The translations under genes and the position numbers were made by a program. Below the pieces are notes generated by a model that worked only from the letters and a program-made list of their open reading frames with translations, searched no databases and was not told the origin of the DNA. This document shows positions 5,475 through 63,868 of a stretch of DNA of 64,000 nucleotides, piece after piece. Location of the stretch: assembly GCA_030272155.1 (NCBI GenBank), contig CP126191.1:2564501-2628500 (forward strand), read 5' to 3'. Numbering within the stretch: position 1 is the first letter of the stretch; each line of letters begins with the position of its first letter. The DNA is from Tetradesmus obliquus (lineage: Eukaryota > Chlorophyta > Chlorophyceae > Sphaeropleales > Scenedesmaceae).

Positions 5475-8303
5475 CAGGTCAGGCGACTTCCACAAAACAG
5501 GAGCAGCAAGCACCTGCCATGCATGGTTCAATCCCAGATCCAGCACCTGCTGCTTCACCTGTCCATGCCTGCTGACAGGCACATCCCTCTACTCCAGCCT
5601 ATCAGCACCACAGCAGTACTACACACTGAGCAGGGTACTGTTGCCCCATGCATGTCGCCGCCGCTACATGCTACACGCATCGAGGCAGCACGATGAGTTG
5701 TCCACGCACCTGCCGGCCCATGATGTGTGCCATGTAGCCCAGAATGCAGCAAAACACACACAGCAGTATTACACATACAGTATACGCATCACACGTGTCA
5801 GCGCTCCGAAAGGCACTGCAAAAGCAGCATCAAAAGACAAACATACTAGAAAGCGCGCGCCGCACCTGCCGGCCCATGATGTGTGCCATGTAGCCCAGGA
5901 TGCAGCAACACACACACAGCAGTACAACCTTGAACCCTACTCCCAAGCCCTTGAGCACAGCAGATAACTAGCCAGTGCACGCACCTGCCGGCCCATGATG
6001 TGTGCCATGTATCCCAGGATGCGCTGCATGGCCAGGCCCTTGGTCACGCCCACGGGGCGCACCTCCACGGAGCGGCCGCCCTGGATGATCTCCACAGGCG
6101 CGTTGCTGATGGGGCCCGTCCACAGGTGCTGCACGGGGCATGGAGAAATGGGGCAACACATACACAGGTTCAGCGGCGAAAGGTGTGATCAGCAGCACAG
6201 CAGCGTCCGTGGTGCGGCGTGGCGTTGCTGATGCGGCCCGTCCACAGGTGCTGCGCGGGGCAGGAACACAAACATTGTGTGTCGAGAAGGTTCAAAAAGA
6301 GACATCGGGCAGGCAGCAGTTGCCAAACAAAGACGAGACAGCTGCTGGGAATTGCTGATGGGGCCCGTCCACAGGTGCTGCGCAGGTAGGGGTACAGAAA
6401 CAGTCAGGGCGTGTGGAAATGAACTTGGAGCCATCAGCAAGGCAGCAGCCGCCACATACCCGCAAAAAACCCTGGGTTGCTGCCCTCCTCACCTGCAGCA
6501 GGTCCCGCGCCTGCAGCCGCCCAAACTCCACGTCGGCGTGCTTGTAGTTCCAGACCAGGCTGGTGTCGCGCACCTCCACGAAGCTGCGCGGCGTGCGCTC
6601 ACAGAAGTAGTCCAGCACCAGCTGCACGCTGTCCATCCACTCCTTGGGCAGCGTGTCAAACAGGCACTTCCACTCCTGCGGCGGCATGGCAGCGGGATCA
6701 GGGGATTGAAGGGTGTTGTTAGAAGCAGCAGCGCACAGCTGTCCATCCACTCCTTGGGCAGCATGTCAAACAGGCACTTCCACTCCTGCAGCAGTAGCCA
6801 CAACAGATTCTTGGCCTCCACTCCTTGGGCAACGTGTGTCGAACAGGGACTTCCACTCCTGCAGCGGCAGCACACAGCAGGTTCAATTCATCCATTGCTT
6901 GCGCAGCGTGCTAAGCCAGCACTTCCACTCTGCCAGCGGCGTGGCGTGCCGCAGGGCCAGACGCTTCCTTTTGCTGCAGTCCGTGCGTTCATCAGTGCAC
7001 CAATCAAAGCTGTGCGGCTGCAGCTGCTGCAGTGTACAGGAAAGTTGCTGCGTGCTAGTGACCCAATCCACACCCCACCACTGCTGTCACCGCTGTCAGT
7101 CTCAAACACACCGCTGTGCCGCACTCACACTGCACCACCAGCAGCGACGCCCCCCTCACACGCGCACACAGCCCAGCCCGTCCGCACCACATTACTGTGG
7201 CAGGCTATCAGCTTATCGCCAACAACACAACCGCAAGCCACCCAACCAGCTGTCATATGTGTATGCATGCATGCACACCTGTGGCAGGTCTGACCCGATG
7301 GGCGGCCGCACGTACACGCCGTTCTCTGCAGCCAGCCACACCGGCAGCTCGCCAAAGGTCTCCTCCAGCTTGGCCATCTCGCTGCCGCTGAAAATGAGCA
7401 CCTCATTGGCGGGGTCAGCACACAGCTCCTGCAAGAGAGCAGCCAGCAGAAACACAGCAGCAGGTAGCACAGCAAACAGCACGGTCAACAATATATTGAG
7501 CAGCAGCAGCAACAGTGGAGTAGTCAAGGGAGCGGCCAGTAGAGGAGGGGCCAGGCCTGCTGTGCGCACCACAGGCCAGCGCGCAGCTCCTGTAGGTGTC
7601 AGAGGCAGCAGCGAAGCAGCACGTCAAGCAAGCCCGACAACAGCCTGCGGTTGCAGATGGTCAGCGCCTGTGCTTCACCTCGGGACAGCGCTTGATGCAC
7701 ACACACGCACACATCCACGCTGCAACCAACACCAGCCTCAAGGTGCGGCTGCATTTCATCACATAGAAAAAAATAACCATTCATCACCCCACACACCTCG
7801 AGGCAGCGCAGGATGCGCGGGTTGACTCGTGTGAGGGCCTTGATCTGGTCAAAGTGGCGCTTGGGCTGCCGCGGCGCCTCCACTGCCGTGGTGAGCGTGG
7901 CGTTGTAGCCCAGCACGATTAGGCGGCGGCTGCTGCTGCCGTAGCCGCGCACAACCTGCAGGCAGGGGTGCGGCGATGTAAGCAGCCAATGGTTGCTGGT
8001 GAAATGCAGTAGACATGGGATACTTTATGCAGTTTTCATCGCAGCAGCGCACGGACGTGTACCAACGGAACCAGCAGTACACAAGACCTGTGGCGCACCT
8101 GCAGGCAATCGCACTGTTATCTTGCACCATGTGGCTGCCAGTCAGCAACAGAGGATTCTAGAAGCACATCAAAACTCGCAGCTGCACCAGCAGCGCCTGC
8201 TGCCCACCTCCGCCACCTCCAGCTCGGGCGGTGTGTGCCTCAGGCGCAGGTCAGCCTCGATGTGTGTGTCATTCAGCTCGCTGATGAAGGTGTCCGCCCA
8301 CGT

Positions 8304-8342
<39 letters not shown>

Positions 8343-10260
8343 GCAGCAGCAGCGGCAGCAGCAGCAGGCAATGCACAGCAGTCCAACAGCCATACAAACA
8401 AGCAAACGTGGACGTGGTGGCATGGCCTGTAATGCATAATCACACCAGGCAGCGCCGCACCAACCGGCATGCCACAAGCAGCACGTATCCACAACAGTCG
8501 CCATCAGCAGGCAGCCGCTGTGTGCGCACACATACCTGTGCGGTGTGTGTGGCCACGTGCATGAAGTTCTGCCTGTGCCGCTCTCGGCGCTCCTCCTCAC
8601 TCATGGTCAGCGCATCTTCAATGGCAGCAGCAACATCATTAATATTCCAGGGGTTAACCAGGATGGAGCCTGACGCAGCGGCAGAGAACAAGCAGTGATG
8701 GCAGCAGAACAGTTGAAGTCAGTGTTGCAGCAAGTACAGCATGCTCAAAACGAGCTTTACGGAACCAGGCATCAAGGCTGCCGCAGATATGATGTTCAGG
8801 GGTTGACCAGGATGGAGCCTGCAGGCGGGAGTGGCAACAGCAGAGATGAGAGTTGGCAGCAAGTACAGCATGCTCAAAAACAACGCTTGACCAGGCACCA
8901 GGCACCAAGGCTGCCAGGGTTCAGTGGCAGGGCGCATAACACAGCCCCGGGTCTCAAAAGCCTTGCAAGCTGACTTTTACTTGTCCTGTCTGTCGCACCT
9001 GCCCCAAGGCTCTCCGCTGCGCCCGCAAACTCTGACAGCGCCAGCACGCAGATGGCAGGGCAATCCAGCACAAGATTGAAAAACGGTTATCCTGCACACA
9101 ACAACACTTGCGCGCCGCACCTGCGCCGAGGCTCTGCGCCGCTCCCGCAAACTCGGACAGCACCAGCATGCAGATGGCAAGACAAATCACGCAGTTGACA
9201 GGACATATCCAGTACAGACTTCAACATCGCACTCATCCTGCATACAACAACACCTGCGCTCCGCACCTGCGCCCAGGCTCTGTGCCGCTCCCGCAAACTC
9301 GGACAGCACCAGCACGCCCGCATTGTCTGCCTGGCAGGCCACGTACTCGTAGCTCACAAGGTTCATGCCGTCACGCAGCGACGTGATCAGCGCCACGTCT
9401 GCGAACAGGCGGCGGTCAAAGGAGTTACAGTCAAGTTTGGCCAAGGGCGGTGGTCAAACTACTGCTACCAAAGAGCGAGACACGCAGCCGAACATGAGAG
9501 GGGAAGCAGGCATGTAGGCACCCGTGGCTACATTGTCCGACTAGGCAAAAGTGCTGGAAAGAGAGCAGCGTCGCCATTCATACAGGTTAAACGCAGCACA
9601 CAGAGCAGCGGGGCTCACCCGTGACCGCGTACAGCGCGCAGAGCTGGTTGCAACATGAGGCGTGCAAGATCAGGCTGCAAACACATGCCTTGCTGTACAT
9701 AACACATCCAATGGCCCCACCCCGGCTCACCCGTGACGGCATACAGCGCGCACAGCTGTCTGTGGCATAAGGCTTGCAAGTGCAGGCTGCCAGCGCATGC
9801 TTGCTTCAAAAACATGTATCTGAAAAACATGTATCAAAGATAATTGCCACTCTTGACTTACCCGTGACTGCATACAGCGCGCAGAGCTCGTGGAAGCTGA
9901 GCTGCCTGTCCAGGTGGTGGATGGGCACGTAGGTCAGCGTGCCAAAGGCGCCGTTGATGCGCCCCACGATCTCGTGCACCATGCTGCGCAGCTTCTGGTA
10001 CTCCGGCACGTCAGTGCGACTGGGCACCGCAATCTGCAGCCGTGTGGAGGTAGAAACATACAGGCAAGCAACTGGTGAGGAACGCATCGGCACAACAGCG
10101 CCGCTTGTCAGACTGGCATTCATGGTCGCTGCGCATGCCAGTGTCGTGCACGCGGCCAGTTGGCCTGCAAGTTGGCAAAGAGGTACCGTACCTGCTAACT
10201 GGATAGATGTCCTGCAAGCACGCACCGCCTGTTGGCTGCTTGTTGCAGTGTTGCAGTGTT

Positions 10261-10302
<42 letters not shown>

Positions 10303-13300
10303 TCGCGGGGCTCACCTGCACCAGCAGCACCTTGTCGCGCCACTCGGGGTGCTCGTGCAGGAACTTCTCAAAGGCCAGCAGCTTCTGAGGGATGCCCTTG
10401 ATCATGTCCAGCCGGTCCACGCCCAGCATCACCTGCAGGCGCGGCAGCAGCAGCAGCAGCAGCAGCAGCAAAACGAAAGTTAGGACTATGCTCTGCTTAA
10501 GGGGACAGTGCTTGGGTATGCCCCTTGATCATGTCCAGGCGATCCATGCCCAGCATCACCTGCAGAGGCGGCAGCAGCAGCATGATGAAAGCTGAGACTA
10601 TGTAGGTCGCTGTGATTGAACAATGCAGGGGGTGCCCGTGATCATGTCCACGCTGTCCACACCAAGCATCACCTGATGAGGCGGCAGCAGCAGCAGCAGC
10701 ACATTAAAACCTGAGCCCATGTCCTGTTTCAATGTAGCTGACAGGCGGAACAGAGGGCTGTTGAGATATGCATTGCTCAGTCATACTCAGCCGGTCAACG
10801 CCCACCCAGCTGCTGCTGCAGCAGCATAATAAGCAGAGCTGCAGCCCGCTCTGCGCCACCTTGCGCCCCACGCATCTATTGAGCAGCTTGGCATGTCCTG
10901 CTTGAAACGCAACTGGCAGGCCGAACCGGGGGCTGGTTGAGGCATGCATAGCTAAGTGATATCCAGCCTGTCAACACCACCCAGCTGCTGCCGCCGCAGC
11001 ATGAGAAGCAGTGCCACAGCCCGCGCCACCGCACCTTGCGCCCCGCGTATCTGTTGAGCAGCTTGGCGATGTTCATCTGCACCTCCTGCGTCTCCAGCGC
11101 CTGCGCGAAGCGCTCCGGGTCGATGCCGATGGGGAAGGCGGCCACGCGCGCCACGCTGGGAGGCGGGAAAAGCAGCGGCACCAAATTTCATACATCAAGA
11201 CGCAGGCGCAATGTTGCGGGGGCGCAGACACCCGGGCAAGCAAGCAGCTGTGCTGAGCACCACACTATGTCATGGATTCAAACGACCCCTTCAAGAGAAC
11301 CGCACCTGCCGTTGTCCTCCACGCCCTCGGGCGTGCCCTCCAGACCACTCCAGTTGTCTTGCCAGCTGGTCACCACCAGATTGTCGGCAACACAACCGGC
11401 ACGCCGCACAGAACGGCACCTGCCGTTGTCCTCCTTGTCCACACCAGGCCCATCAATGATTGCAACGTGCAAGCACTACTCCAAGTCAAACAACACCCCT
11501 GTCACAAAGTCAACATCGCACCTGCCGTTGTCCTCCACGCCCTCAGGGGTGCCCTCAAGGCCCAAAATGCGCGTGCAGCTGGATATGAAGTGGCGCGCGT
11601 AGTCGTAGGTGTGGAAGCCGATCAGGTCGGCGCGCAGCGTGGCGCGCAGCACCTCCTCGCGCACCGGCAGCGTGCGGTAGATCTCACTGCTGGGGAAGGG
11701 CGTGTGCAGGAACCAGCCCACCTGCAGAGGGGAGAGGTTTACAATATTTTGTAACTGTGTTGTGATTACAGGGTGTGCGCAGTGTCAGCCATGGCTTGGC
11801 CTGTTGCTATTGTGCGGCCGATAGATGAAGCCGCCAGGACAGCAGCAGCGGCGCTGACCGAATGCCGCTGCTGAGACATCAGCACAGCAAGCTGCCTGTT
11901 CACTTTTCACACATGCATGTTATGTTTTGACCCTATGGTAACACGACCCACCTTGATGCGCGGCACGGCGTTCTTGAGTATGCTGGGCAGCAGCATGAGG
12001 TGGTAGTCCTGCACCCACACCATGTCCCCGGGCTGGTAGCAGTGCAGCACAACCTCGCCAAAGCGGTCGTTGGCCTGCAGCGGCAGCAGCAGCAGCAGAT
12101 GAGTTCATTCAGCTGTGTGCAGTTGATGAAAGCCCAGTAAGCATACTGCGTGGGTAGGCCCGGCAGCACCACCTTGCCGCAGCGGTCGTTGGCCTGGGGC
12201 AGCAGCAGCAGCAGTGGTGACGGCAGCAGCAGCAGCAGCAGCAGCAGCAGCGGGATGTTGCAGAGGAAAAGACAGCGCCCAGCTTGGTAGCCACAGAGCA
12301 GCCTAGGCCGGTTGCTGCTGCCGCACTCAATTCCAGCCACTCGTTGTCACCAGCTCCCCACAAAGCAATAGGCCACAAGCATTGGCCCTGCCGCAATGAT
12401 GCATCAATCACGCCTTCAACCCAAGCGCGCGCGCCACTGCATCTGCAGCATTCCATTCTGCCCCGCGCCACTCCATCCCCGCCGCACCTGCTGGTACGCG
12501 CCCCACTGCATCTGCAGCACACCATGCAGCTTCAGCCCATTGCTTACATGTATGTAACTCTCTGTTAACACCACACCACACCACAGCCACCGCACCTGCT
12601 GGTATGCGCCCCACTGCATCTGCAGCGTCTGGTGCTCGCCTAGCCGCTGCCAGCCATCCAGCTGCAGCGGCACATAGTGGAACAGCTGCCACAGCACACT
12701 GTTGCAGAAGCCATTGTAGTACAAGTCCAGCAAGCCGGACTCCAGCCACACGGGCAGGTAGCCCTCGCGCTTCAGCATGGCGGCCAGAGCGTCCCTGTCG
12801 CGCCCCGGCTTTACGTAGATGCCTGCATGTGGCAGCACAGCACAAGGAGAGGTGGTTTGGTACGTGGTGAGGTGCTGCTGCAAGCCAGTGCATCCTTGTC
12901 ACGCCCCGGCTTCAGGTAGATGCCCGCACGGCAGGAGTTTGGGGGTTTAGTTTCATATAGCAGTTCAGTTGAGTTCTGTAGTACCGGTGGGCAGCGAAGC
13001 GATGTCGCGCCCTGGCTTCACGTAGATGCCTGCAGTGCAGCAGCACATTACATGAGGAGATGACTGCAGATGCCGTGACAGCGACGGGAAAAATGGCTGA
13101 CAGGCCAGTAGTATCTGTTCAGCTTGTTGGGCAGTGAGGTGGGTGTGCAGGGGTGCAAGAGGTAGCCTGCAAGGTGCGGCACGCTAGATACTGCCAGAGA
13201 GACAGCAGTTTCGCAGGCACCCTGCTGCGCTAATGCTGCTGCTCATGGGCAAGGCAGGTGTGCAGTAGACACGCGGCAACGTGCCACCTGACCATGCTAC

Positions 13301-14158
13301 TGCCTCTGCTTCAGTTGCTGCTGCTGCTGCTGCCCCCGCTGCCATTGCTGCCGCTGCCCCGCCTGGTCAGCCAATCCACAGCGTGCAGTAGTTGTCTATG
13401 TAATCAGTCTCGCTGCTGCTGCTGCTACTGCTGCTGCTGCCGCCGCCACTGTTGCCGTCACTCCCACTGCTGCCGCCCCACCTGGCCATCCGATCCACAG
13501 CGTGGAGTAGTTGTTCACGCCCATGAGCGCAGACACCAGCCCGCCAGCACTGATCTGCAGCTTCCACTTGCCGGCCGCGTCCTTGCTGCACGTCACCGGC
13601 AGCCGGTTCGCCACCACGATTAGCCGCCCGCCTGACGGCTCCACCCTGCAGGAAAAAAAACAGGTAAAGAGTAGCGGCCAGCTGCTGTTTGTGACAACGT
13701 GGTGATGCTGCTTGCAAGCTGCTGGCTGTTGCTTGATAAAAGGCAGGGGAGAAGCACCTGGAGCAGATGTCCTGGGGCAACTGCAGGCCACAGCGCAGCA
13801 CTTCTGCCTGGCAAGCAACTGCTGCACCTGCTCAACCTACTTAAACTCTTGGCTAAGCGTTACTGCAGCAGCTGCCGCTGCTGTGCCTGTATCTGCTGCC
13901 CTGCCTATCGCCCAGTTGCGCCTGCCAGGCTCCCCTGCAGCCGCAGCTGCTGTGGTGGCACTGGCCTGGACCCGCTGCACTGGCTGTGGCTATCCTGCAA
14001 GCATTCCTGCAAGCACTCCTGTTTCCTGCAAGCGGCCCGCCAGCCAGCCCACCTGTCCAGCGGCACCAGGTCCTGGCCCTCCCACATGTCCCATTCCTCC
14101 AAGTGATCCAGCGCCTGCGCGGAGCGGCTCTTGCGGATGCGCTCACGCAGCAGGCGGT
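3205..14158 (-). CDS. TPS: Trehalose-6-phosphate synthase, TPS-TPP fusion with degenerate phosphatase
   Basis: Makes trehalose-6-phosphate from UDP-glucose and glucose-6-phosphate; probably cytosolic. Sixteen in-phase exons: 14158-14053, 13645-13482, 12822-12596, 12074-11952, 11721-11522, 11155-11035, 10432-10316, 10033-9862, 9398-9267, 8669-8536, 8303-8217, 7955-7797, 7428-7279, 6675-6493, 6128-5985, 5427-3205. The GT20 synthase half is well kept: [53 protein letters not shown] (the catalytic Arg and Lys), [23 protein letters not shown] and SEFAGAA. The TPP half has lost its catalytic Asp motif (LGYNATLT for LDYDGTLT), and the late GDDRSDEDMF block is replaced by [11 protein letters not shown]; the VTKG lysine remains. 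The last exon adds about 700 residues of Gln/Ala/Ser/Gly low complexity. The first coding exon(s) above 14158 were not identified, so the N-terminus is incomplete. Active synthase with inactive phosphatase is the arrangement of plant class I TPS. Confidence 0.93.
8308..8373 (-). repeat. (CTG)n tract upstream of a TPS acceptor
   Basis: A nearly pure triplet run reads CAG on the plus strand and CTG on the TPS sense strand. It ends just upstream of the 3' splice site of the exon starting at 8303. It stands where a polypyrimidine tract is expected. Confidence 0.85.
10515..10990 (-). repeat. Four echoes of a TPS exon 5' edge
   Basis: The acceptor and start of the exon at 10432 (coding [10 protein letters not shown]) recur in the upstream intron at about 10515-10566, 10631-10677, 10783-10810 and 10961-10990. 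Several copies keep the AG-acceptor context and the adjoining triplet tract. The copies farther from the exon are more degenerate. They would be decoy 3' splice sites or pseudo-exons. Confidence 0.8.
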
Positions 14159-14209
<51 letters not shown>

Positions 14210-16137: not shown

Positions 16138-16169
<32 letters not shown>

Positions 16170-16659
16170 TTGCTGCTGGCTGCTTGCAGGGCAAACCACG
16201 GGGTGCAGACCATGTATGAGTTTGCGGAGGAGGCCGGCGGCATGGAGCGCAGCAGATACTTCGGCTTCTCAAAAGGTGCGCAGCAGGTGCTGTGGCTTCT
16301 CTAAGGCGCACAGCAGATGCTGTGGCTTCTAACAAGGCGCTTCAGCAGTGATTTGGCTTCTCAAACGGTCCACAGCAGGTGCTTTGGCTTCTCAAAAGGT
16401 GCGCGGCAGGTGCTTTAGCTTCTGTGAAGCACACAGCAGATGCGGTGGCTTCTCAAAATCCGCTGCGGCAGTTTGATTTTGTGGTCTCAAAAAGTCCACA
16501 GCAGTTATCTTTCAGCTGTACTTTGGCCTTTTTAAAGGTGCCGTCGCTGCTGCATGTGCAGAGTGGCCAAAGCTGGCTCTCTCGCACACCAAGTACAGCT
16601 TCTCTGGCTGTGCCCAAATTCGTTAATGTCAGCAGCTGGGATGTGGCTCCACAACTTGC

Positions 16660-16695
<36 letters not shown>

Positions 16696-17930: not shown

Positions 17931-20669
17931 ATGCTGCAGTGTACTGCGCTCGGCCTAGGCCAGCCTTTAGCGTCTGCAGCTTTGGTGGCAGCGCATACAT
18001 TACGCATTTGGAGCATGGCTCAGCCAGCTGCAGCAGCTTACAGCACTGGCGCGCCGAGCGAACCCGTTGAGCTCACAGTCTCGGAAGACTTGCTGTCAAA
18101 AGTGACAGACAAGGAGCTGCTGCGAACGGGAGGCCTGATAGGCGGCAAATGGACGCAGGCCACAAATAGAGCAACGTTCCATGTGAGTGCACAGATAAAG
18201 GCACTAGATCCAGGCAATGCTGTGGTGGCGGGTGCCCCTGCTGCACCAGCAGCACAGCACTGTGGTACACTGCATTACGCGGTTGGCGTGAAAAGGGCTG
18301 CGGTAGCATGTGTGTTGTGTTGTGCTCTGTGGCGGTGTGCATGTGTTGTATTTGGTGTATGTATACTGCAGCCAAGTTGTGCTGCTGAAGCACATCCACC
18401 AGCACTTGTTACGCATGGCTCCTGTGTTTCAAGTGCCGCACTGGGCCATGCATGGGCCATGCAGGAGGATGCTTACATCAGCATCAGGCAGGAGTGCAGC
18501 AGTCGCAGGCTTCACATCACAGATGCAATCACTGATGTTGTTGACAGAGTGTTGCAATCAGATGCATGCAAGCAGGCCACTGGTACGTGTTATCTTGAGC
18601 GCGACAGTCGGAGCCAGGACAGGAAGCAGGGTGCACACACTAGGTGCCGCCAGCTGTGTACACATGTGTTGGTGGAGGCGTTTCAGCTGCACCCAACTGC
18701 GCCTGTAACACGCCTGCTGTGCACTCATCCTGTGCGGCTGCAGGTGCACAGGCCCGCCTTCACGTTTTGCTGCGCAACTGCTGTGCATGTCGACGTACTG
18801 CTGTTGCTGCTGCAGGTGCACAACCCCGCCACAGGCAAGGTGATAGCCACAATGCCCAAGATGCGCGCAGATGAGACGCTCACAGCCATTGCAGCAGCAC
18901 ACGCAGTGTTCCCCACGTGGGCCAACACCACAGCAAAGGAGCGAGGCGCCATCCTTATGCGGTGAGGCGGCCGGCGCAAAGCTTGTATAAGGGCTAGCAA
19001 ATGTATATGTTGCGAAGGGCTAGCAAATGTATATGTTGCGAAGGGCTAGCAAATGTATATGTTGCGAAGGGCTGGCAAATGTATATGTTGCGAAGGGCTA
19101 GCAGCTGCTTTTGTTTCGAGCATGTGCATGCCACAAAGCATTTCCTGCTCTGGTTGCGCGGGTGTGGTTGTGGCGGTGGTCTGGCTGGCTGTAGTACCGA
19201 CGAGCTGCAGCAGCATTCTGATGAGGCATCCTGTGTGCGTGCCATGCGGCACAGCATGTATGCCAGCTGCAATCAGCAGCCAGCCATGACGTCTTTGCAT
19301 GCTGCTTGCTGCTGCTGGTGGGGCCTGGTGTGCCCCACACCCTCTGCTGTTTGTACCAGGAAAACCTCAATCCTCAACGCCAGCGATAACATAGCTACTG
19401 CGGTAACATAGCTACTAAGTAACATAACATAGCTACTGCGGCACTGCTGCGCCTCACCCTGCTGCAGGTGGTACCAGGAGATCCTTAATGCCAGTGACGA
19501 CATAGCAGCCATCATGACAGCAGAGTGCGGCAAACCTCTGGCGGAGTCCAAGGCAGAGATTGCAGCAGGGTGAGGCGCAGCAGCAGCAGCAGCAGCTGGA
19601 TGAGTGCATCATTTCCAGTCTTGCGGCTGCATCGACGAATTAGTAGCGTCGCTCTGCATGTGCAGCATCTGGCATTGCCAGCCAGTGTGCATGGGTGCTT
19701 GAGGTTACACCATGTGTGCAGTGGCAATCGATGCGCAAAGAGAGAAATGTTGCGTGGCTGTGGCCCAGGTACAACGCCAGTCTCACTGGCAGTGCCAAAT
19801 GCCTCTGATAACGCTTACACCACAGGCGCTCCTGCTGTGCTGTGCTGTGTTAACTGCCGCAGCGCTGCGAGCGTGGAGTGGTTTGCTGCGGAGTGCCGGC
19901 GCGTGACGGGTGACGTGCTTGAGACCGTGGACCGCAGCAGGCGCATGGTGACGCTGAAGCAGCCTGTTGGGGTGGTGGCGGCCATCACCCCCTGGAACTT
20001 CCCCATGTCCATGATCACGCGCAAGGTGGGAATTGGCGCTGGCAACAAAGTGCATTGTTGCAACGTGCTTCAAGCACGATATGATGATGTATACACGCTG
20101 CCAGCTGCTGTGTTGCGCCGGCAGTACGATTGGTTGAGCGATGGCAGCAGCTTGTGCCGTGATGAAAAGTATTGCTATCTGCCGACTGGGTGGCCGGGAG
20201 GTTTGCTGTCAAGCGTGGCTGGCTTGCTGGCCAGCCGCGCTCTTACATCCATCATGCTCGCACACAACAGTCGGCCGAGCCTCGCTGTTGCATTGTCCAT
20301 CATGCTCCAATTTCATGTCCGCAATTCACTTCTGCAGGTGGCGCCGGCTATTGCTGCCGGCTGCACGGTGGTGCTCAAGCCTGCTGAGGCCACGCCGCTG
20401 ACCGCGCTGGCGCTTGCGGAGCTGGCCGACAGGGCTGGCGTGCCTGACGGCGTGCTCAATGTGGTGCTGGGCGACGCACCCAGCATAGGTGCGGAGAAAG
20501 TGGTGAAGCCAAAGCTTAATTACCAACAATGCATTAGTACAGTTGTGAGACGCTAACTTGTGTAGAAAAGCTTGCTGCAAAGTTGGTCATGGCATCAGCG
20601 TGTTGGCTATATTGGTTTGCCATGAAGGCCAGCAATGGGCCAATGGGTACACGCAAGTGCCTGCTGAAG

Positions 20670-20714: not shown

Positions 20715-21477
20715 GTTCAACCCGCAGGCCACGCCATGATGAGCAGTGAGACTGTGCGCAAGATTGGGTTCACCGGCAGCACAGCAGTGGGCAAGATGCT
20801 GGCGGAGCAGGCGGCAAAGGTGCGGGGATTTAGGTTCAGGTTTGAAGGTTCAGGTTTTAAAGTTCAGGGATTGGCACTGGCGGAGCAAACAACTCCGCCA
20901 GTGCCAGAGCAAACGGCGAAGTTCGAGCGCCAATGAAGGGCGGCTTTGTCACAGATTCTGTGCAGGCGGCTTTGTCACACACTCTGTGTTACACAATCTG
21001 TGCATTGGTGAAGCGTGTCTGGCTGCACACTTAGTTGCTCAGTCGCATACTCTGTTGGTACTGTTTTGTCACACACTCTGCACGCAGACAGTGAAGCGCG
21101 TGTTGCTGCATACTGTTAAAATTGTATGTTGCGAAATCCGTTACAAACACTCTGTTCCACATGTTCCACCTGCAGATGGTGAAGCGCGTGTCGCTGGAGC
21201 TAGGCAACTTCTGATTTGTGTGTCTGCTAATGTTGCGTTTACTGTTTAAACCTGCTGTCACATACTCCGCCTGCAGACGGTGAAGCGTGTGTCGCTGGAG
21301 CTGGGCGGCAACGCGCCCTTCATCGTGTTTGATGACGCTGACCTGGAGCTGGCGGCAGCAGGCGTGGTGGGCAGCGCGCTGCGCAACAGCGGGCAGACCT
21401 GCATCTGCGCCAACCGCGTGTTCGTGCAGGACCAGGTGCGTGCGCATGTTCATCATTGATGATCCATGAGGCAGGCG

Positions 21478-21512: not shown

Positions 21513-23515
21513 AGACAGCATAGTTTGCCCCTCGATGGGGACTGCAGGCGCTGCTCACTGGGTTGGCGTGGCAGCTTGCGTGTAGTGCTGCTTGAGGCGG
21601 ATCTGCTCCCGCGGCGTGTGGTGTGTGTGCAGCCGTCAGAGGTTGACGCTGTTGGTTGCTCTGCTGCTGCTTGTGCTTGCTGGTACACTGTAGTGCCGTA
21701 CCTGTGTGCAAACTGTTGAAATTGCCCTACCACTTTGGCTGCGTGTGGTGGTGCAGGTGTATGACAAGTTTGCTGAGCTGGTTGCAGCCAGGGTGGCAGC
21801 GCTGAGAGTTGGCGACGGCGCAGCGGCAGACACCACGCACGGGCCGCTCATATCCCCAGCAGGCGTAGAAAAGGTGAGGGCCCACAGGGCTGTTTGCAGC
21901 ATGCAGTAGCGTGAGAACACCGTGGCGTGTCCGTTGAGCTCATGATGCATTTCTCTGCGGTGATACAGCTGCAGCAGGCCTGCTTCAGTGTTGCGTGCTT
22001 TTTGTAGTGAGCTTTCTGTGCTTTCTTCAACAGAGGTGCATGCGGCAATTATTGCTGCTGCTTTGTGCCTTAATGCGCCAAATGTTGGTCTGGTCTAAAC
22101 TTGTCCACTTCCATTGCAGGTCGTTGCGCATGTCAGTGATGCGCTGGCCAAGGGTGCCAAGCTGCTGGTGGGCGGGTCAGTGCCACAGCTGCCTGAGCCG
22201 CTGTCAGGAGGCAACTTCTACAGCCCCACTGTGCTGGCTGAGGCCACCATCGACATGTGAGTGGGGTTGATAGTTGTTGTTGGCCTTAGGGTGCTGGAGT
22301 GTTTTGTGTCGCGCAGTGTGTTGTGTTTTCTGTGTGTGGCGTGGCGGTGGTGGGTGACGGCTGCTGCTTGCGCTTGCGTGCTGGGGGCCAGCTGCATGTG
22401 CAGGTTTTGGCAGTGTCGCAAGGGTTTGATGTGCATGGCACTGCTGCTTGGCTGTGGGACACGTGGCCTGCCTTTACAGCCCCACTGTGCTGGCTGAGGC
22501 CACCATGGACATGTGAGTGAGAGGTGGACTGCGGCAGGGTGCTTTGCGTGTCGTGACTGTGACTTTTATGTGGGTTGTGAATTGCGGGGTTGGGGCTGGT
22601 GGCAGCTGCTGCCTGCGCCTGAGTGCTGGTGCCTGCTTGTTTGATGCTAGCTGGTGGTTGCAGTACTCCCGTGGTTTAACCTGCTGCTCCTGCTGCTGTC
22701 CCTGCTGCTGCTGCTACTGCTGCTTGCAGGCGCTGCTTCCGTGAGGAGACCTTTGGGCCCCTCATCCCACTGTTCAGGTGGGCAGCAGCAGCAGCAGCGC
22801 AACCGCGCCTCGGTCCTGCAGCACATCAGTCAATAACGGGTAGCATGGCAGCTGTTATTGATACCAGGTGCAGCGTTGTGAGCAGTTGCAGCACCAGCAA
22901 CAACATGCCAGCTGGCGTCACACCCTCCTGCCACAAAGCTGCACAAAATGAAAATATGCGTCAAACTGTTCATACACAACCAAACCACTGTCATGTGCAT
23001 TGTTATATGACAATGTTACGGTTGCTGTGGCGCACCAGGTTCAAGGAGGACGACGAGGCTGTGCTCATGGCCAATGACACTGAGTATGGGCTGGCTGCCT
23101 ACTTCTACACGCGGGACCTGCGGCGGGCCTGGACCATTGCGGAGCAGCTGGAGTATGGCATGGTGAGCCTGCTACAGGTTCCAGCGTTTCAGTTGTTATC
23201 TGTTGTTGCTTTTTGGCTTGGCTTGCTTGGCACAGCATATCCAGGCGGGGGTGGACCATTGCGGAGCAGCTGGAGTATGGCATGGTCAGCAGTGACGCGG
23301 CAGCGCTTTGTAACATGAAGTGATGTGAATAAATTGGTGCTTGTGCTTGCGGGGGGCTGTAAGCTTGTCTAAGTGCGAGCGTGGGAGGTGCAGGGCTGGG
23401 TCATGTGATGGCTGCAGTTGCAATTGCGGCGCACCTGCTGGCGACCTGGCCGGCTGCATCCACAGCTATACGTGCTATGCTGCACTGCAAGATGGACTGC
23501 CTTCTGTAACATCAG

Positions 23516-26049: not shown

Positions 26050-26084
<35 letters not shown>

Positions 26085-26175
26085 ACCGCCCCTTGTGCCT
26101 CCTAGGTTCATCCAAGGGGTCACGCTCTTCGACAACTACTACGTGACGCCGCACCAAGTTCTCGCCTGACTTCTC

Positions 26176-26217
<42 letters not shown>

Positions 26218-28030: not shown

Positions 28031-28419
28031 TGCCAGGTTGTATGAGAAGATTAACGGCGTGCGCCAGACCAACCAGATCCGCTTCAGCCCTGCGGAGTAC
28101 AAGGCCAAGTACCACAATGACCCGCACATCAAGAACCTGGGGCTCAGCAACTCCACCATCGACGTGAGCAGGGGAGGGCTTGGGGTATGGGGTTGATTGG
28201 GAAAGCGCACCAGCAGTAAAGCTTTCAGTGCTGCTGCTGCCGTTGATTGCAATTCACAGTAGGCGTGCGCAGCACTGGAGTACCTGGATGGTGTGCTCGG
28301 GAAAGAAAAACACACCGTGTCTTTTGCCGTTGCTGCTGCTGCCGGTCATGTTGGTCACAATGCACTCGCCAGGCGTGGGCAGCACTGAAGCACCTTGCTG
28401 GGTTTTCTCAACCAACGTC

Positions 28420-28451
<32 letters not shown>

Positions 28452-29042: not shown

Positions 29043-29081
<39 letters not shown>

Positions 29082-48508: not shown

Positions 48509-51500
48509 ACAGTGTACCTGAAGCCAGCGCTGCTGCAGTCTACAGTGCCGACATGTTCAAAGTGGTGCCCTGTGGCGACAATGCATACAGCAATGGCCTG
48601 GATGGAGCTACATCCTGCCGTGCGTGCCCTACTGGATTCAAAACAGATCCCATGGATGAGATTGCCTCTCACACTTCTGTAGCGGTGTGCAAGGCACCTC
48701 CAGGGTTCTACATCGGCGGAGAAAGTGTGATGCCCTGCCCGGCGGGCTCTTTTTCTTCAAACTACACTCTGCTAAGGGACTGCACAGATTGCGAAGAGGT
48801 GTTTGGCCCGGGGGTGACAACACAGGCCGAGGGCGCCAACTCATCGGCTGCTTGCAACGTGTTAGAGCCTGGCAGGGCGTTCGTGCAGCGCAGCAAGGTT
48901 GTCACTGATGAGAATGACAGTGATGCGGCTGGCGGCATTCGCATCGTTGCCCTGGATGCTGGCATCACTACGAAGGCCTGCCCGCAGTCTTTCTTCTGGT
49001 GAGGGAGCTGGCATCTAGCAGATATTTTTCAAGTATGCAGCTGTCTTGTGATGTAGCTGGAGTGCACATCATGTTTCATGTTTTCTGTCACAGTGCATGT
49101 GCATGCAGCTGTCCTGTGATGCAGCTGGAGTGCACATCAAGTTTGTCGCGGAGTAATCACAGCCTTGAGCGCGCCGTGATACGGCCTGTGTGGTGTAGAT
49201 AGACGCATCAGCAGCAGCCACACACATGTAGCATTACGGCTAGTGTATGTGCACACACCAACACTTATCAATGCACTCCCACTGCCTTGTGCTTCTACTT
49301 GCAAGGTTATGACAATTGCCATGATGCGAATGCATTCCCACTGCTTTGTGCTTCTACTTGCAAGGTTGAGTTCTGTGTCGCGACGCAAACGCACCCACTG
49401 CTTTGTGATTCTGCTTGCGTGCAGTCCTGGAGGCACCACCCCTCCCACCCGCTGCTACCGTGGCATGATGACAGAGGGGGAGGGAGCAGTCAATGAGCAG
49501 CAGTGCGTGGCCCCGCCAGGCTGGTTCCTGCCGGCTGAAGCAAGCCAGGACGTGCAGGAGTGCCCTAGCGGCACATACAAGGAGGTGAGGGTGCTGCCGC
49601 TGCTGCTGTGCATCTGCTGCTGCGGGTAGAGGGTGTGGAGCCCAGGGGCGCCGCCCCTGGCCACACACGCCTTCCTGGCCTTGACTCACCCAGGAGCTGC
49701 AGAGCTGCCTGGGTAGTCACTCACTCACTCACTCACTGCTGCTGCTGCAGCTTTGTGTAGTTGCGTATGACTGTCAAGCAGCAACCTATGACAGGTTTCA
49801 ATTCCAGCCACATCTCAAGTGCTCACCTCTGGCTCTCACAAGTACGCCACCCTGCTGCCACTTCCATTGCCTTTTCCGCCTGTGCAGGGCTGGGACAGGG
49901 CAGCCAGCTGCACCCCATGTGGCAGTGGCCCCTGGCTATCAGAGCAATCTGAGGCCTTAGACATCCTGGATCCTGATACCAGCCTCACCATTGCAGTGAA
50001 CTACACGCGCGGCTCGACTCTGTCTTGCTACACCCAGCCGGGCATGGGTGTCATAACAGTTAATAACACGCTGACGGCTGTCATTTGCCCCGTCGACTTC
50101 TATGGGGCAGCCACGCAGCGCAACGGACTGCTGGTAAACCCCTGCCTGCAGTGCCCTACTGGCACTGTGACAGCAGGTGATGAGCGTGCGAAGCAGTACA
50201 ACAATGCAGCTGGAGACAGTGTGGCTATTGCTGAAGGGGGATACTATAGTGTTGCATCCTGCGTCACACCTCCAGGTGAGATCTGCGTGACAAATTTGCA
50301 AAAGTTACATGTTTATGTCTGTGACAGTTCAAGCGTCGGTGTTTGGCAAACAGTTAGCACTCCTCATCCTAATGCAGTCGCTGTTGCCAAGTAGCTGTAA
50401 GCACCTACAGCCGGGTAAACTCATGCAGCAGCAGCGCCATTGCCGTTGCTGTTGTGCTTTCCTCTGTTGAGATGTGCAAGTGCCGGCAGCCCACTTTACT
50501 CAGTTTCTCCAAGTACCGCTGCACACGCCACACCCTGCGCCATGCCACAGCAGATTGCAGCACTGTTTCAATGCGTGTCCCACACCGCATGTAGCGGCAC
50601 TCCTGAGCATTGAAAGAGGAGATATTTCCAATAACATCGTAGCTGTGTGGTGCAGGCTGGGGCTATGATGGGGAGGAGGCCCAGGAGTGCCCTCAGGGCT
50701 ACTACAATGAGGGCGGCAACCTGCTGCCATGCAAGCAGTGAGTTGACTGGCTCAGATGCAGCTGGAACAACTGCTGCACCTAGGTCCTTTTGCTTTACTG
50801 ATCTTGTTGGAGCGACTGCGAGCTTTAGGACTTCGCACGACTGTGATGTGTCATGCTGAAATCTGCTGTGTGTACACTTGACCACCACTGTTTGCCTGTG
50901 CAGGTGTCCTTTCGGCCACACCACTGCAAGCTCTGGCGCCAGCAGCGCAGCCGACTGCTCACACTTCTCACCAGGCTATGGCCAGGGCCCTTCAGGAGCT
51001 ACAGCCCTCTGCCCTGATGGCACATACTCAACAGGCGACAAGCCAGCTAGCCAAGAGCCCTCATGCACACCTTGCCCTGAAGGCAGCACCACATTCGATG
51101 CTGGCGCAAAGTCCTTGCAGGAGTGCAGCAAGTGTGCGGCTGGCTACGGCCGTGCCTCGGAAACAGCAGCATGCACGCGCTGCGAATCTGGAACATATAA
51201 CCCAGAGGCAGGCAGGATGCTGACAGATAGCCGCTGCTTACGCTGCCCCGTCAACCGCGTGTGGGAGTATGATTGGCCCAGTGCTGGGGCCTCCACTGTG
51301 TTTGTGCCACAGGCTGTGAGCCGGCCGGGGGCCCAGAACCTTGCGGACTGTCTGACGGACTTCTCTCAGACCTTTGATGGGGCGTTCTTCTTGGATATGA
51401 AGGCTGGGCCTGAGGTGGCAGCACTGGAGCGACCCCAGGGTGATGGATTCAACTTGCAGGTGGGAGGGCCATCTGGCAGCTGCATGCATGCATGCAGCCA

Positions 51501-52451
51501 CAACCAATTACTGCTTTGTTTGGGCCTGCATGCATGCATGCATGCAGCCACAACATTCTCGGCTTTGTTTGAGCCTGACCCAGGGTGATGGATCAAGCCT
51601 GCAGGCGGGATCAGCAGCCTGCAGCTAAGCATAGGGCCAGCCTCTGTGGAGTGTCTGGTGACGAATGGCAAGGAGATCACATGTTGTGCCCACACTGCTG
51701 TGCTTTTGACAGCTGTGCAGTTGACAGCTGGCCCAGGCCTGAAACATCAACTCCATAAGCCACATGAAAGATGGTGGTGATGCCGCCATGCTTACACAGT
51801 GAACGCTCTGCTGCCGTCACACTCTGGTGATGTGCTGTAACTTGCTGCTGCTGCTGCTGCTGCCTGGCTCTGCTGCAGACGTGTGTGCAGCGTTGCGCAG
51901 ATGACGACAGCTGTGCCGCTGCAACCTTTGACTATGATGACTTTGGCTGTGTGCTGTGGAGGCCCGGCACAGCCTCACCAGGCGCTACTTATGTAGCACA
52001 AGGCGGCATCGCCTTCAAAACTTTCACATCTACTTATGTCGTCGCCAGCATTGGCAACGGGCATCACAGCAGCTTTGTCAGCAACACGGCAGCTGCTGCC
52101 AGTGCCGGCATTGGTGACAAAGGAAGTGCGGCAGGCGCGGCAAAAGCTGCTGGATTTGGGCCTGGGGTTTTTTCTTACACACCTGGATCTGCTTCCGCAG
52201 CATCATTTAGGCAAGGCAGTCTGAAAGCATTTGGCACTGCCAGCTTGACCGAGTGCTTAACGTCATGCACATACCAGAACATGTGTTCAGGCGTGATGTT
52301 TGGGCCTTACAATGAAACAACAGATGCGCTACAGGACATTGCAGGGGCCGCGGCCGGCACCAAATGCCAGTGGATTATGGGACAGTCGCGGCCTGGGGAC
52401 AGCAGGCGGACGCTAATCAAAACTAGGGACCCTGTCAGCCTGCCAAGCTAA
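47489..52451 (+). CDS. Secreted Cys-rich protein, ephrin-receptor-like repeats and PAN-like domains
   Basis: Probable extracellular or wall/adhesion protein; function unknown. Eight in-phase exons: 47489-47604, 47881-48020, 48281-48998, 49425-49584, 49888-50275, 50656-50737, 50904-51459, 51879-52451, giving 910 residues. The N-terminus has a clear signal peptide (AAAAFLLLFLADG). The body is a chain of CPxGxxS/T...C..C modules such as CPAGSFSSN, CPSGTYKE, CPQGYYNEGG, CPDGTYSTGD and CPEGSTTFDAGAKSLQEC, resembling GCC2/GCC3 (ephrin-receptor-like) repeats. The C-terminal ~190 residues contain two PAN/Apple-like units (CVQRCADDDSCAAATFDYDD and CLTSCTYQNMCSG). A poly-Ser run lies in exon 3. No transmembrane segment or kinase domain is visible. 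Intron 3 carries acceptor-tract echoes. Confidence 0.82.
49034..49424 (+). repeat. Intron repeats including acceptor-tract echoes
   Basis: A ~35-bp unit with TGATGTAGCTGGAGTGCACA is repeated near 49034 and 49103. Further on, CCCACTGCTTTGTGCTTCTA followed by CTTGCAAGGTT occurs near 49277, 49336 and (diverged, CTTGCGTGCAG) at the true acceptor ending 49424. The pyrimidine-rich 3' splice region itself is triplicated. Confidence 0.8.
51479..51556. repeat. TGCA-palindrome direct repeat in intron
   Basis: GCATGCATGCATGCAGCCACAAC-type sequence occurs twice about 47 bp apart, each a run of self-complementary TGCA. An echo of the exon 7 donor edge (CCAGGGTGATGGAT, then CTGCAGGCGGG) follows at 51579-51612. 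Confidence 0.75.
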
Positions 52452-59262: not shown

Positions 59263-59295
<33 letters not shown>

Positions 59296-59480: not shown

Positions 59481-59529
<49 letters not shown>

Positions 59530-60993: not shown

Positions 60994-61038
<45 letters not shown>

Positions 61039-63868
61039 AGACTGGAGGTGAGTTGTCTGGCCTGCATTGTGAGTTGTGCCTGCAGCGCTGCTGTGCATGC
61101 TGGCGTGGTGTGCGCTGCTGCTGGTGGCTCCGCTGCCGCTGCTGCTGAAGATGTCGGGCAGCAGCGGAGGCAGCTGCAGCCCTAGCTGCTGCAGCTGCTG
61201 CTCATAAGCCTCCAGGTGCGGCCTACAGCACACAACATAAACATAACATAAGATGACAAACTTGGAAGCAGCGCAGCTATAGGGAATAGGGAAAGTCAAA
61301 TAGGGAAAGTCGAATAGGGAAAGTCAGTGCGAAATAGCGACGGAACATTATTCCTGTTTGCTGTCGCTAACCAGTCCCTAAGTGATCCCTATACAGCGTT
61401 TAGGGACGGCTTAGGGACTCATTTAGGGACAGGTTAGGGACTCATTTAGGGACAGGTTAGGGAAGCCAGTCTTAGTGCAGTGCTACGTAAGCACTATTGC
61501 GAGGCTTGCAGAAACCAAGAGCATGTGCACAGTAAACGCATTGCCAGTACTGTCACATTACTGCTGTTGTTGAAAGTCAGCGCCGGCTGCTGCCAGCACC
61601 AGCACAACGCGCCCGGCAGAACACCTGGACGAAGCGCACTCGTATCAACGCAAAAGACCACCCGGCTACCTGCAGCGGCTGCCAATACGGCCACGACTCC
61701 ATGTGTCACACCCACCTGCCCCTTCCTTCTGCAACCCCGCACAACACACAAGCAAAGCACATGCCACACATCACGCACAACATTGGACTCTATCCTACAA
61801 GACTAGTATTCTCAGATTCCCACCCACCTGAGCAGTGGATCCTGCAGCAGAATGTCACACTCATGCAAAACATTGGACTGTATCCTCACTCTGCAGATTG
61901 GCAACCCACCTGAGCAGTGGATCCTGCAGCAGCTCCAAGCTGCTAGGCCTGCAGCAAGGGTCTTTTTGCATCAGCCTCTGATGCAAACCTCTTAGCCCAG
62001 CACTATACATGCCCGGCAGCTGCGGCGCCCTCGCCCGCCGGATCAATCGATAAATCACCGCGATGCGATCGGCGCTGAAAGCAGGTCGCAGCGCTGCCAT
62101 TTGATACAACACGCAGCCGAGCGCCCAAATGTCGGCTTTTTGATTGTAGCCGGTTCCGCCGAGCTGCTCCGGGGCGAGGATGTTTGGTGTACCCACAAAG
62201 GATTGGGCCACGGCACTGCTGCGCTGGTGCTGCGCAGCGATGAAGGAGCCTGCGCCGCCGCTGCTGCTGCCGAAGAGTGAGGCGCCTGTGGCGCTGCCCG
62301 TCATGCTGTGTCCTGCATCCAGCACCTGTACAGGTGGGGCAGAGGTGATGGGAGCGGATGTTGAAATCAGCGCGCCAGTGTCAGTGTTGTGCTGCATATG
62401 CCGCTGAGTTTTACGACCGTTAGGACGCTAGCTGTGCAGCACTTTGCGCTCAGGCTGAGCTGGGCAGCAACGGCTGCTACATGTTCTTGTCATAGCTCCT
62501 GCTGCAGTGAATACAACAGACCTCACCGGCACATACTGCATGCTGTTACTGTGGTGCTGGCTGCTGTCTTGTGCTGGCTGGTGCTGCATGACACCAGCTG
62601 CTGCACACACATGTTGCACGAGCGCTTCAAAAGGAGTGATGCTTCAAAAGTTGCTGCAGCAAGCCTGCACCAACTGCAGCGCACCTTGACCAGGCCAAAG
62701 TCCCCCAGCTTCAGCAATCCCTGGCTCGTCATGAAGATGTTATTTGCTTTCAAATCCCGGTGCATCAGGCCCCGCGAGTGGATGTACGCCAGCGCCGCAA
62801 CCAGCTGCACAAAGTAGCGCAGCAGCAGCGGCTCCGGCAGATGCCTGCCTGCCTGGCCGGCCTGCTGCAGCCTGCTGTGCAGGTCACCGCTGTCTGCAAA
62901 CTCCATCACAATGTTGAGTCTCGCGCCATCAGCAAAGCAGTCGTGATATCTGCATGAGAGGCATAGGAAAGATGGTGTTATGCAGCACACTGAGAGGCTG
63001 GTTGGTTGTACAGTGGGAGCTGCCTATGCCGCGAAGGGAGATGCAGCTGCTGCTGCGCCAGCCATGCAATGCGGCAGACGCCGGCGGCTGCAGGAGCTGC
63101 CAGCAGCATCCTCCAGCATACTGAGCCGGTAGCGGTTCCACCAGGCAGCTGTGATTACAGGTGGGCACTGCTGCAGCTCAACCACAGCCGATCATACAAT
63201 GCATTTCAACCAACCAATACAGCCGATTGTAATCGCAGCGCCTCACCGAATGATGTTGGGGTGCTGCAGGCTGGCCAGCACTGCCACCTCTCGCTTCTGC
63301 TGCTCCAGGATGGACCCCGCCTGCCCCACAGCAGCAGCAGCAGCAGCAGGCGCCTCCAGCGCCTTGATGCACACCAGCTGGCCGGTGGGCAGGTGCTGCG
63401 CCTTGTGCACGCAGCCGAATGCGCCGCGCCCCAACTCCTCAAGCATGCGATACTCGCCCTGCACAGTGCACAGGACGTAGCACAGCATGAAGGTTGCTGC
63501 CCCAAGTTTTGCAACTGCGCAGAACTTGCAGCAGCAGCAGTGACAGCTGTACTACCTCCAGCATGCTGTACTTGCCCGTGGAGTCAAGCTCGCAGTTTTC
63601 AGCCAGACTGCTTGGGACTATAAGTGTGACTGCTGCTCATGCATGGCGATGCAGCTGGCTGGGCTGGTGATGCACGTGCAAATTGAAAGCAGCGCTGCTG
63701 GCAACAAACAGCAGAACGCACAGGCTGCAACTTGCATTGAATGCTGGCCGCAGCCGCACCTGCAGCGTCACTGCCGGCTTGACTGCTGGTGTCTGCATGG
63801 GGAACAGCCGCCGCAGCGACTGCAGCTGCTTGCGTGAGAAGTCGGGAGTGGCCTGCGCCCGGCTGCTG

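What the first reader, a model, noticed from the sequence alone, without database searches (positions are those of the whole stretch)
5700..62000. Splice-site echoes: introns built from tandem copies of neighbouring exon edges
Seen directly in seven of the nine genes (TPS, DUF4864-like, SSADH, sulfatase, ABC1K, Cys-rich, NEK). An exon end with its donor is copied downstream, or an acceptor with the exon start is copied upstream, one to seven times, always inside the adjacent intron. Examples with 30 or more bases: 22475-22518 (43 of 44 identical to 22220-22263), 27722-27752 (30 exact), 41128-41158 (about 32 exact). Many copies keep GTGAG or CAG. Copies near the exon are the freshest. This implies continuing intron growth by tandem duplication across exon-intron borders, and a large supply of decoy splice sites. 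Tandem duplication is a known route of intron gain, but I know of no description of this density or of such a regular edge-only pattern.
Basis: partly seen in the sequence, partly recalled or inferred. Interest (0 to 1): 0.9.

Follow-up and report, generated by a model that had tools for sequence, protein, structure and literature searches.

The report
Exon edges echoed inside algal introns
In a green alga, short stretches spanning the end of an exon and its splice site have repeatedly been duplicated into the neighbouring intron, so that introns grow and hold decoy splice sites; the same anatomy was recently described in chickens, and it offers a natural experiment on how cells choose between nearly identical splice sites.

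Summary
The window lies in the genome of the green alga Tetradesmus obliquus. In the window plus two 100-kb blocks, 39 of 608 exon edges matched the adjacent intron at score 36 or more, against about 0.05 expected with swapped introns; exon-interior segments gave 0 of 208. In refined models 46 of 582 edges carry 67 echoes (window 27 of 164; blocks 4 of 238 and 15 of 180). Best reading: tandem duplications (copy spacing median 119 bp) straddling splice junctions. Only the outermost site keeps the frame, so the inner copy becomes intron; selection freezes the exon copy, so similarity lasts in exon plus splice consensus and fades beyond. In 14 of 42 edges (9 to 18, depending on the indel rate assumed) the intron part is more diverged than plain decay allows, suggesting short-tract homogenisation. 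Micro-exons and mobile elements found little support. Nonsynonymous differences are fewer than a neutral echo predicts, unresolved. Caveats: home-made gene models, no RNA, no second assembly, 264 kb examined.

The parts
5700..6022 (-). TPS/TPP exon end (donor border 5985) with echoes at 5861-5903 and 5700-5747
6100..6386 (-). TPS/TPP exon start (acceptor border 6128) with echoes at 6222-6262 and 6352-6381
6614..6945 (-). TPS/TPP exon start (acceptor border 6675) with echoes at 6724-6792, 6817-6869, 6889-6945
8648..8915 (-). TPS/TPP acceptor border 8669; whole tandem unit repeated at 8797-8915
8994..9317 (-). TPS/TPP donor border 9267; echoes about 9116-9171 and 8994-9049, intron part homologous
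9612..9891 (-). TPS/TPP donor border 9862; echoes 9726-9757 and 9614-9648
10389..10701 (-). TPS/TPP acceptor border 10432; echoes 10522-10565 and 10629-10701
10718..11072 (-). TPS/TPP donor border 11035; tandem unit repeated at 10718-10892 (read directly, not in the echo count)
11296..11562 (-). TPS/TPP donor border 11522; echoes 11410-11434 and 11301-11346
12044..12214 (-). TPS/TPP acceptor border 12074; echo 12163-12196
12428..12626 (-). TPS/TPP donor border 12596; echo 12479-12518 and a further partial copy 12428-12456
12783..13060 (-). TPS/TPP acceptor border 12822; echoes 12884-12928 and 13003-13060
13348..13514 (-). TPS/TPP donor border 13482; echo 13348-13395
16247..16504 (+).
18737..18830 (+). 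SSADH acceptor border 18816; short echo starting about 18744
21084..21306 (+). SSADH acceptor border 21277; echoes 21158-21205 and about 21084-21108
22219..22519 (+). SSADH donor border 22256; echo 22475-22519
23122..23290 (+). SSADH donor border 23162; echo 23244-23290
25974..26276 (+). Sulfatase acceptor border 26229; echoes 26099-26153 and 25974-26024 (unit 126 bp)
26718..26931 (+). Sulfatase acceptor border 26911; echo 26718-26746
27000..27132 (+). Sulfatase donor border 27018; echo about 27109-27132
27603..27752 (+). Sulfatase donor border 27625; echo 27723-27752
28255..28616 (+). Sulfatase acceptor border 28575; echoes 28471-28518, 28370-28400, 28255-28300
28928..29141 (+). Sulfatase acceptor border 29100 (my reading of the sequence); echo from 28965; the gene model took the echo as exon start, so not in my counts
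30946..31067 (+). Sulfatase-gene acceptor border 31049; echo 30946-30971
41034..41283 (+). ABC1K donor border 41060 (my reading; the model put it elsewhere); echoes 41127-41158 and about 41187-41207
43454..43946 (+). ABC1K donor border 43525; echoes 43594-43649, 43711-43786, 43905-43946
44115..44295 (+). ABC1K acceptor border 44263; echo 44115-44176
51435..51609 (+). Cys-rich gene donor border 51459; echo about 51579-51609 with GT changed to GC
61761..61945 (-). NEK-type kinase donor border 61910; echo border 61828, intron part homologous; not in my counts

Best explanation
The echoes are relics of local tandem duplications, copies about 119 bp apart, that straddle an exon-intron border on the donor or the acceptor side. 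After such a duplication only the outermost copy of the splice site restores the reading frame, so the inner exon piece with its splice site is carried as intron; the intron gains one unit and the newest echo lies nearest the exon. The exon copy and its splice consensus are held by purifying selection while both intron copies drift with substitutions and indels, so recognisable similarity shrinks to the exon piece plus the splice consensus. In about a third of edges the exon piece also looks too young for its intron flanks, which I attribute to homology-limited short-tract homogenisation (gene conversion or unequal exchange) between exon edge and echo. Shown by calls: the echoes, their excess over controls, homologous intron flanks in part of the cases, longer introns, decay of echo splice sites. 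Inferred: the survivorship filter, homogenisation, continuing activity. Unknown: what makes the breaks and why the spacing is so regular.
For: Excess over swapped introns and over exon interiors. 34 donor and 33 acceptor echoes; 61 of 67 alignments reach within one base of the border. Intron stretch between copies homologous at z 4 or more in 19 of 44 edges (15 of 44 at z 3 or more with another scoring) and as a group. Spacing median 119, quartiles 107 and 130, n 61. Nearest echo more identical in 11 of 14. Introns with echoes longer. Repeats local: 30 within-intron matches, 10 between introns of different genes; one inter-echo stretch had a single match in the genome. Intron part less similar than 5% of neutral simulations in 14 of 42 edges at indel:substitution 0.6, 18 at 0.3, 9 at 1.0 (15 in the first run). 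Echo splice dinucleotides changed in 10 of 122 bases, codon positions 1+2 in 95 of 1661. SSADH without echoes is identical to the deposited protein.
Against: 17 of 44 edges show no homology of the intron part (z below 1), so for these a tandem unit is not shown. Among pairs at least 90% identical, 30 touch exons, 9 are intronic and 0 intergenic, which could also mean targeting of edges. Differences are more synonymous (80 to 58) than a neutral echo predicts (0.361 +- 0.039), which plain decay or conversion does not explain. The acceptor side fades more gradually than the donor side (-7 0.73, -9 0.70 against backgrounds of 0.29 and 0.36). Introns with three echoes (n 3) are not longer than those with two (411 vs 457). 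Neither survivorship nor conversion was observed directly.
Confidence: 0.6

Rival explanations
1. Plain tandem duplication with neutral one-sided decay and no homogenisation: everything follows from the exon copy being frozen while both intron copies drift.
For: 28 of 42 edges are compatible with it at indel:substitution 0.6 and 33 of 42 at 1.0; in the 19 edges with homologous intron parts, intron mismatch (225 of 1356) and third-position difference (36 of 236) agree with one common age.
Against: 14 of 42 edges below the 5% level, about 2 expected; positions 1+2 differ less than expected (19 of 468).
Confidence: 0.3
2. Echoes are kept by selection because they are used: as alternative exon ends, poison exons or decoys that regulate splicing.
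For: Synonymous excess fits an echo in which about half of nonsynonymous changes are rejected; echo splice sites score nearly as well as true ones when intact (6.2 vs 7.4 donor, 6.4 vs 6.5 acceptor medians).
Against: Far ends carry no splice sites clearly above background (score 4 or more: 0.21 vs 0.15 donor echoes, 0.12 vs 0.09 acceptor echoes; at 6 or more 0.09 vs 0.03 and 0.06 vs 0.03, tiny counts); GT/AG lost in 9 of 61; 15 of 16 gaps in exon parts shift frame; SSADH proteins of relatives have no insertion at its echo sites (7 aligned).
Confidence: 0.1
3. A break-and-copy process aimed at splice junctions (transcription- or splicing-coupled damage, templated repair) makes short copies of exon edge plus splice consensus.
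For: Sharp end of similarity just past the donor consensus (+4 0.84, +6 0.55, +8 0.32; backgrounds 0.33, 0.29, 0.31); no intron homology at 17 of 44 edges; fresh pairs concentrate on exons (30 of 39 pairs at 90% or more).
Against: Whole units with homologous intron at 19 of 44 edges; comparable numbers of purely intronic repeats when only non-exonic matches are counted; donor and acceptor edges equally affected.
Confidence: 0.15
4. Unequal recombination between diverged alleles or paralogues: the echo came from another haplotype whose introns differ.
For: Would give synonymous-rich differences and unrelated intron flanks (17 of 44).
Against: At the 14 decoupled edges third positions differ no more (21 of 163) than at the other 28 (54 of 327), although intron parts are much more diverged; introduces an unobserved second haplotype.
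Confidence: 0.06
5. Insertion of a mobile element or introner beside the splice site with a long target-site duplication.
For: Exon piece duplicated around an unrelated stretch in 17 of 44 edges.
Against: Only 10 matches between introns of different genes in 89 kb of intron, 2 of them between two apparently duplicated genes; the single inter-echo stretch searched is found once in the genome. Only one stretch was searched genome-wide.
Confidence: 0.03

Closest known systems
Exon stuttering / sequence stuttering on chicken dot chromosomes (PMC12954441, Genome Biol Evol 2026; seen: passages, section 7 whole, discussion whole)
   Same: Lateral part of an exon with its donor or acceptor copied into the neighbouring intron; source at most 1 base from the border in over 90% there, 61 of 67 here; exon parts median 36 bp there, 35 here; strictly local; purely intronic repeats occur too; both donor and acceptor sides.
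   Different: There 190 of 5,572 dot-chromosome introns (3.4%), median 4 copies, long arrays, GC-rich microchromosomes, intron length polymorphic between birds. Here a green alga, 44 of 291 introns, 1 to 3 copies, three places on contigs C1, C2 and C5 with GC 0.55-0.58, spacing tight near 119 bp, exon and intron parts of differing age. The text held has no word beginning with alga.
Boundary-crossing tandem duplication in a potato RdRp gene (PMC4974935; seen: abstract and results section)
   Same: Tandem duplication crossing an intron-exon boundary, splice signals inherited from the parent border.
   Different: One event, which made a new intron and inserted exon sequence; here the copies stay as inert intron and the mRNA is unchanged as far as SSADH shows.
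Tandem genomic duplication model of intron gain (review PMC3443670; seen: passages)
   Same: Tandem duplication that doubles splice-site-like sequence.
   Different: Model duplicates an exonic AGGT to create an intron; here existing introns are enlarged.

Membership tests
Exon stuttering (PMC12954441) | Partial copies of an adjacent exon edge, including the splice site, in the neighbouring intron | tested here: met
   67 echoes on 46 of 582 edges; GT/AG kept in 52 of 61
Exon stuttering (PMC12954441) | Source within 1 base of the exon border in over 90% of cases | tested here: met
   61 of 67; search queries were edge-anchored, which favours this, but exon-interior segments gave 0 of 208
Exon stuttering (PMC12954441) | Local (proximal), not dispersed | tested here: met
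   Swapped-intron control
Exon stuttering (PMC12954441) | Multi-copy clusters, median 4 copies, introns covered by tandem repeats | tested here: not met
   29 edges with 1 echo, 13 with 2, 4 with 3; one 31-bp array of 6.9 copies outside the counts
Exon stuttering (PMC12954441) | Intron length varies between individuals | not testable with these tools
   No second assembly or reads held
Exon stuttering (PMC12954441) | Confined to GC-rich dot chromosomes | tested here: not met
   Present in W, A and B, three contigs, GC 0.576, 0.584, 0.553
Tandem duplication intron gain (Rogers model) | A new intron arises from a duplicated exonic AGGT | tested here: inconclusive
   Echoes lie inside longer introns; whether any intron here was born that way needs relatives, not tested
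Introner or mobile element | Inserted sequence has relatives elsewhere in the genome | tested here: not met
   One inter-echo stretch unique; few matches between genes' introns
Alternative or mutually exclusive exons | Splice sites at both ends of the copy | tested here: not met
   Far ends near background; 34 donor and 33 acceptor echoes

The most novel reading that the evidence does not exclude
Exon edges act as standing donors that keep rewriting their intronic echoes by very short, homology-limited conversion tracts that end at the splice consensus; because a damaged echo can be written back into the exon, echoes come under weak coding-like selection. Introns of this alga would then be dynamic tandem arrays anchored on exons, by a process shared with birds.
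Probability: 0.2. Interest if true: 0.85.

Novelty: new variant of a known kind. Interest (0 to 1): 0.6.

Why it matters
It carries a phenomenon described in 2026 for chicken microchromosomes to a green alga, at a higher rate in the 264 kb sampled (44 of 291 introns) and without special chromosomes, which points to a general route of intron growth. It may help explain why T. obliquus introns average 462 bp against 230 to 302 bp in four other green algae (Table 1 of PMC5966456, passage seen; my own models average about 307 bp, 89,219 bp over 291 introns, so they probably miss long introns). It is also a natural experiment on splice-site choice: near-identical sites compete and the outermost appears to be used, as exon definition (recalled concept) would predict, a question that RNA reads from this species could answer at many sites at once.

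Tried and rejected
Recursive (ratchet) splicing at echoes: set aside, because many exon ends before the donor are not AG (list). Micro-exons: far ends near background. Mobile element or introner. Selection on the splice sites as such: GT/AG in echoes change at least as often (10 of 122) as codon positions 1+2 (95 of 1661). Diverged haplotypes: see rivals. The first gene-finder run collapsed into three giant genes and one of two settings over-predicted introns (689 introns in 7 genes); both were discarded and the second setting kept. First z-scores for the intron parts (15 of 44 at z 3 or more, 20 below 1) were replaced by a stricter scoring (19 of 44 at z 4 or more, 17 below 1). Two of 46 edges dropped out because the intron stretch was too short, and four of 46 out (too short, or echo not reaching the border). 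A hand count made during the work had suggested a neutral codon pattern at the decoupled edges; the scripted count (6, 6 and 21 differences of 163 per codon position; 18 synonymous, 11 not) does not show that, and I do not claim it. Echo-echo and three-way comparisons (echo-unique 28 synonymous and 25 not, exon-unique 7 and 0) could not be polarised safely. The TPS protein search listed no T. obliquus protein among its 120 rows, so it gave no check of that gene. No swapped-intron control was run for the refined set of 46 edges (threshold 34); the control belongs.


Full report
What the window is. It is C1:2564501-2628500 of a genome of 104,662,953 bases in 17 contigs. My SSADH model, echoes left out, is 100% identical over 519 aa to a protein named Tetradesmus obliquus OEZ86_010970, so I take the species to be the green alga T. 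obliquus. Pfam finds aldehyde dehydrogenase, trehalose-phosphate synthase and phosphatase domains (split over two of my models), a membrane transport protein, a sulfatase, an ABC1 domain and a protein kinase.

Method. No annotation and no RNA are held. I wrote a gene finder, trained on the window (W) and on two fetched 100-kb blocks (A on contig C2, B on C5), which gave 40 genes and 304 introns with donor consensus CAG|GTGAG and acceptor TGCAG|G. It read some echoes as small exons; 13 whose length was a multiple of three were removed and 2 kept for the frame, leaving 291 introns. Errors remain, for instance at the ABC1K 41060 and sulfatase 29100 borders, in NEK and in the unmodelled DUF4864-like gene. 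Simple repeats of period 1 to 6 were masked in the alignment searches.

Is it more than chance? Before that removal, 23 donor and 16 acceptor edges of 304 each had a match of score 36 or more in the adjacent intron; length-matched introns of other genes predict 0.05 and 0.0. Segments 131 to 200 nt inside exons gave 0 of 101 and 0 of 107, where the edges of the same exons gave 10 and 6. After it, 46 of 582 edges carry 67 echoes at score 34 or more: 27 of 164 edges in W, 4 of 238 in A, 15 of 180 in B. They lie in 15 of 40 genes, more clustered than random (p 0.003).

Anatomy. There are 34 donor and 33 acceptor echoes, and 61 of 67 alignments reach within one base of the border. The exon piece has a median length of 35 nt. 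On the donor side identity stays high through exon and splice consensus and then falls: +4 0.84, +6 0.55, +7 0.52, +8 0.32, with backgrounds of 0.33, 0.29, 0.29 and 0.31 (+5 is 0.94 but so is its background). On the acceptor side it fades more gradually: -7 0.73, -9 0.70, -12 0.43, -13 0.37, backgrounds 0.29, 0.36, 0.29, 0.25. Successive copies are 119 bp apart in the median, quartiles 107 and 130, n 61, with no preference modulo 3. The nearest echo is the more identical at 11 of 14 multi-echo edges. Introns with echoes are longer: 407.5 against 256 bp; one echo 378 (n 27), two 457 (n 13), three 411 (n 3).

Origin. At 19 of 44 edges the intron stretch between the copies is itself homologous (z 4 or more), so a whole tandem unit is visible; at 8 the signal is weak and at 17 absent. 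Anchored alignment of 42 edges against unrelated edges shows a general shift (KS p 2.6e-9), weaker but present in the 17 edges with exon parts at least 95% identical (4 of 17 below 0.05, combined p 0.0004). Matches are local: 30 within introns, 13 between introns, of which 10 between different genes; one inter-echo stretch searched against the whole genome was found once. This fits local tandem duplication and gives no support to a mobile element.

Why edges? Among repeat pairs 40 to 300 bp apart, 69 touch exons, 18 are intronic and 5 intergenic; at 90% identity or more the numbers are 30, 9 and 0. Counting only pairs with at least 40 nt of matched non-exonic sequence they are 9, 13 and 5; by my sorting 7 of the 13 lie within echo arrays and 6 elsewhere, and the 5 intergenic pairs fall at two places, one of them the unmodelled DUF4864-like gene. 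I conclude that duplications also arise away from edges and that edges stand out mainly because selection holds the exon copy; a bias towards edges, or towards genes, is not excluded. The inner copy is tolerated because the outermost site still restores the frame. That is inference; for SSADH it agrees with the deposited protein and with six relatives, four of them bearing names that look like transcriptome records (recalled), none with an insertion at its two donor echo sites.

Exon part and intron part differ in age. In neutral simulations matched to the exon-part divergence of each edge, 14 of 42 edges have intron parts less similar than 5% of simulations (5 below 1%) at an indel:substitution ratio of 0.6; the numbers are 18 and 12 at 0.3, and 9 and 3 at 1.0 (a first run gave 15 and 6). 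Exon-part differences at these 14 edges are 33 of 527. Something seems to refresh the exon piece: homology-limited conversion or unequal exchange is my preferred reading, a short templated copy the alternative.

Selection on echoes. With one echo per edge, exon-echo codon differences are 80 synonymous and 58 not (580 codons, 46 edges), 0.58 synonymous, against 0.361 +- 0.039 simulated for a neutral echo beside a constrained exon with the spectrum of homologous intron parts (none of 500 simulations as high). An echo that rejects half of nonsynonymous changes would fit, and so would a fourfold higher synonymous rate in exons. Against present function: 15 of 16 gaps in exon parts shift the frame, GT/AG is lost in 9 of 61 echoes, and the far ends carry no splice sites clearly above background. 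I leave this open.

Literature. Nine searches were answered. The closest match is PMC12954441 (2026), which calls the same anatomy on chicken dot chromosomes exon stuttering; the text held has no word beginning with alga and the search 'sequence stuttering' with 'intron' returns that paper alone. The potato case (PMC4974935, abstract and results read) and the tandem duplication model (PMC3443670, passages) are related but concern new introns. In these searches I found no description of exon echoes in algae; only listings were seen for most papers, and papers outside the library were not searched. Verdict: real, a new variant of a known kind, interesting for its rate, its distance from birds and the test of splice-site choice that it offers.

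Noticed in passing
about 24520-24637 and 31349-31466: A 118-bp stretch at the start of the first modelled intron of the sulfatase gene has a 98% identical inverted copy in a later intron of the same model: perhaps a small dispersed element (window coordinates computed from the models).
   Followed up: no
18989-19103; 26732-26833; 61399-61463: Minisatellites: 26-bp unit x4.4 (97%), 18-bp unit x5.7 (100%), and a 23-bp unit holding TTTAGGGAC, which resembles the plant-type telomere repeat (likeness recalled).
   Followed up: no
whole window: CTG/CAG triplet runs are everywhere, in introns near acceptors and in exons as runs of Q, S, A or L; whether they seed the duplications was not tested.
   Followed up: no
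block A (L009-L018), models A1 and A2: Two models share introns of 400 and 399 bp at 100% identity: an apparently recent gene duplication.
   Followed up: no
all echo edges: Copy spacing is tight around 119 bp (donor side 127, acceptor side 109.5) while the exon share varies from 12 to about 76 nt; no cause found.
   Followed up: partly
10583-14730 and 5985-10432: The echo-rich trehalose-phosphate synthase gene had no T. obliquus protein among the 120 listed matches, although SSADH did; echoes may disturb gene annotation.
   Followed up: no
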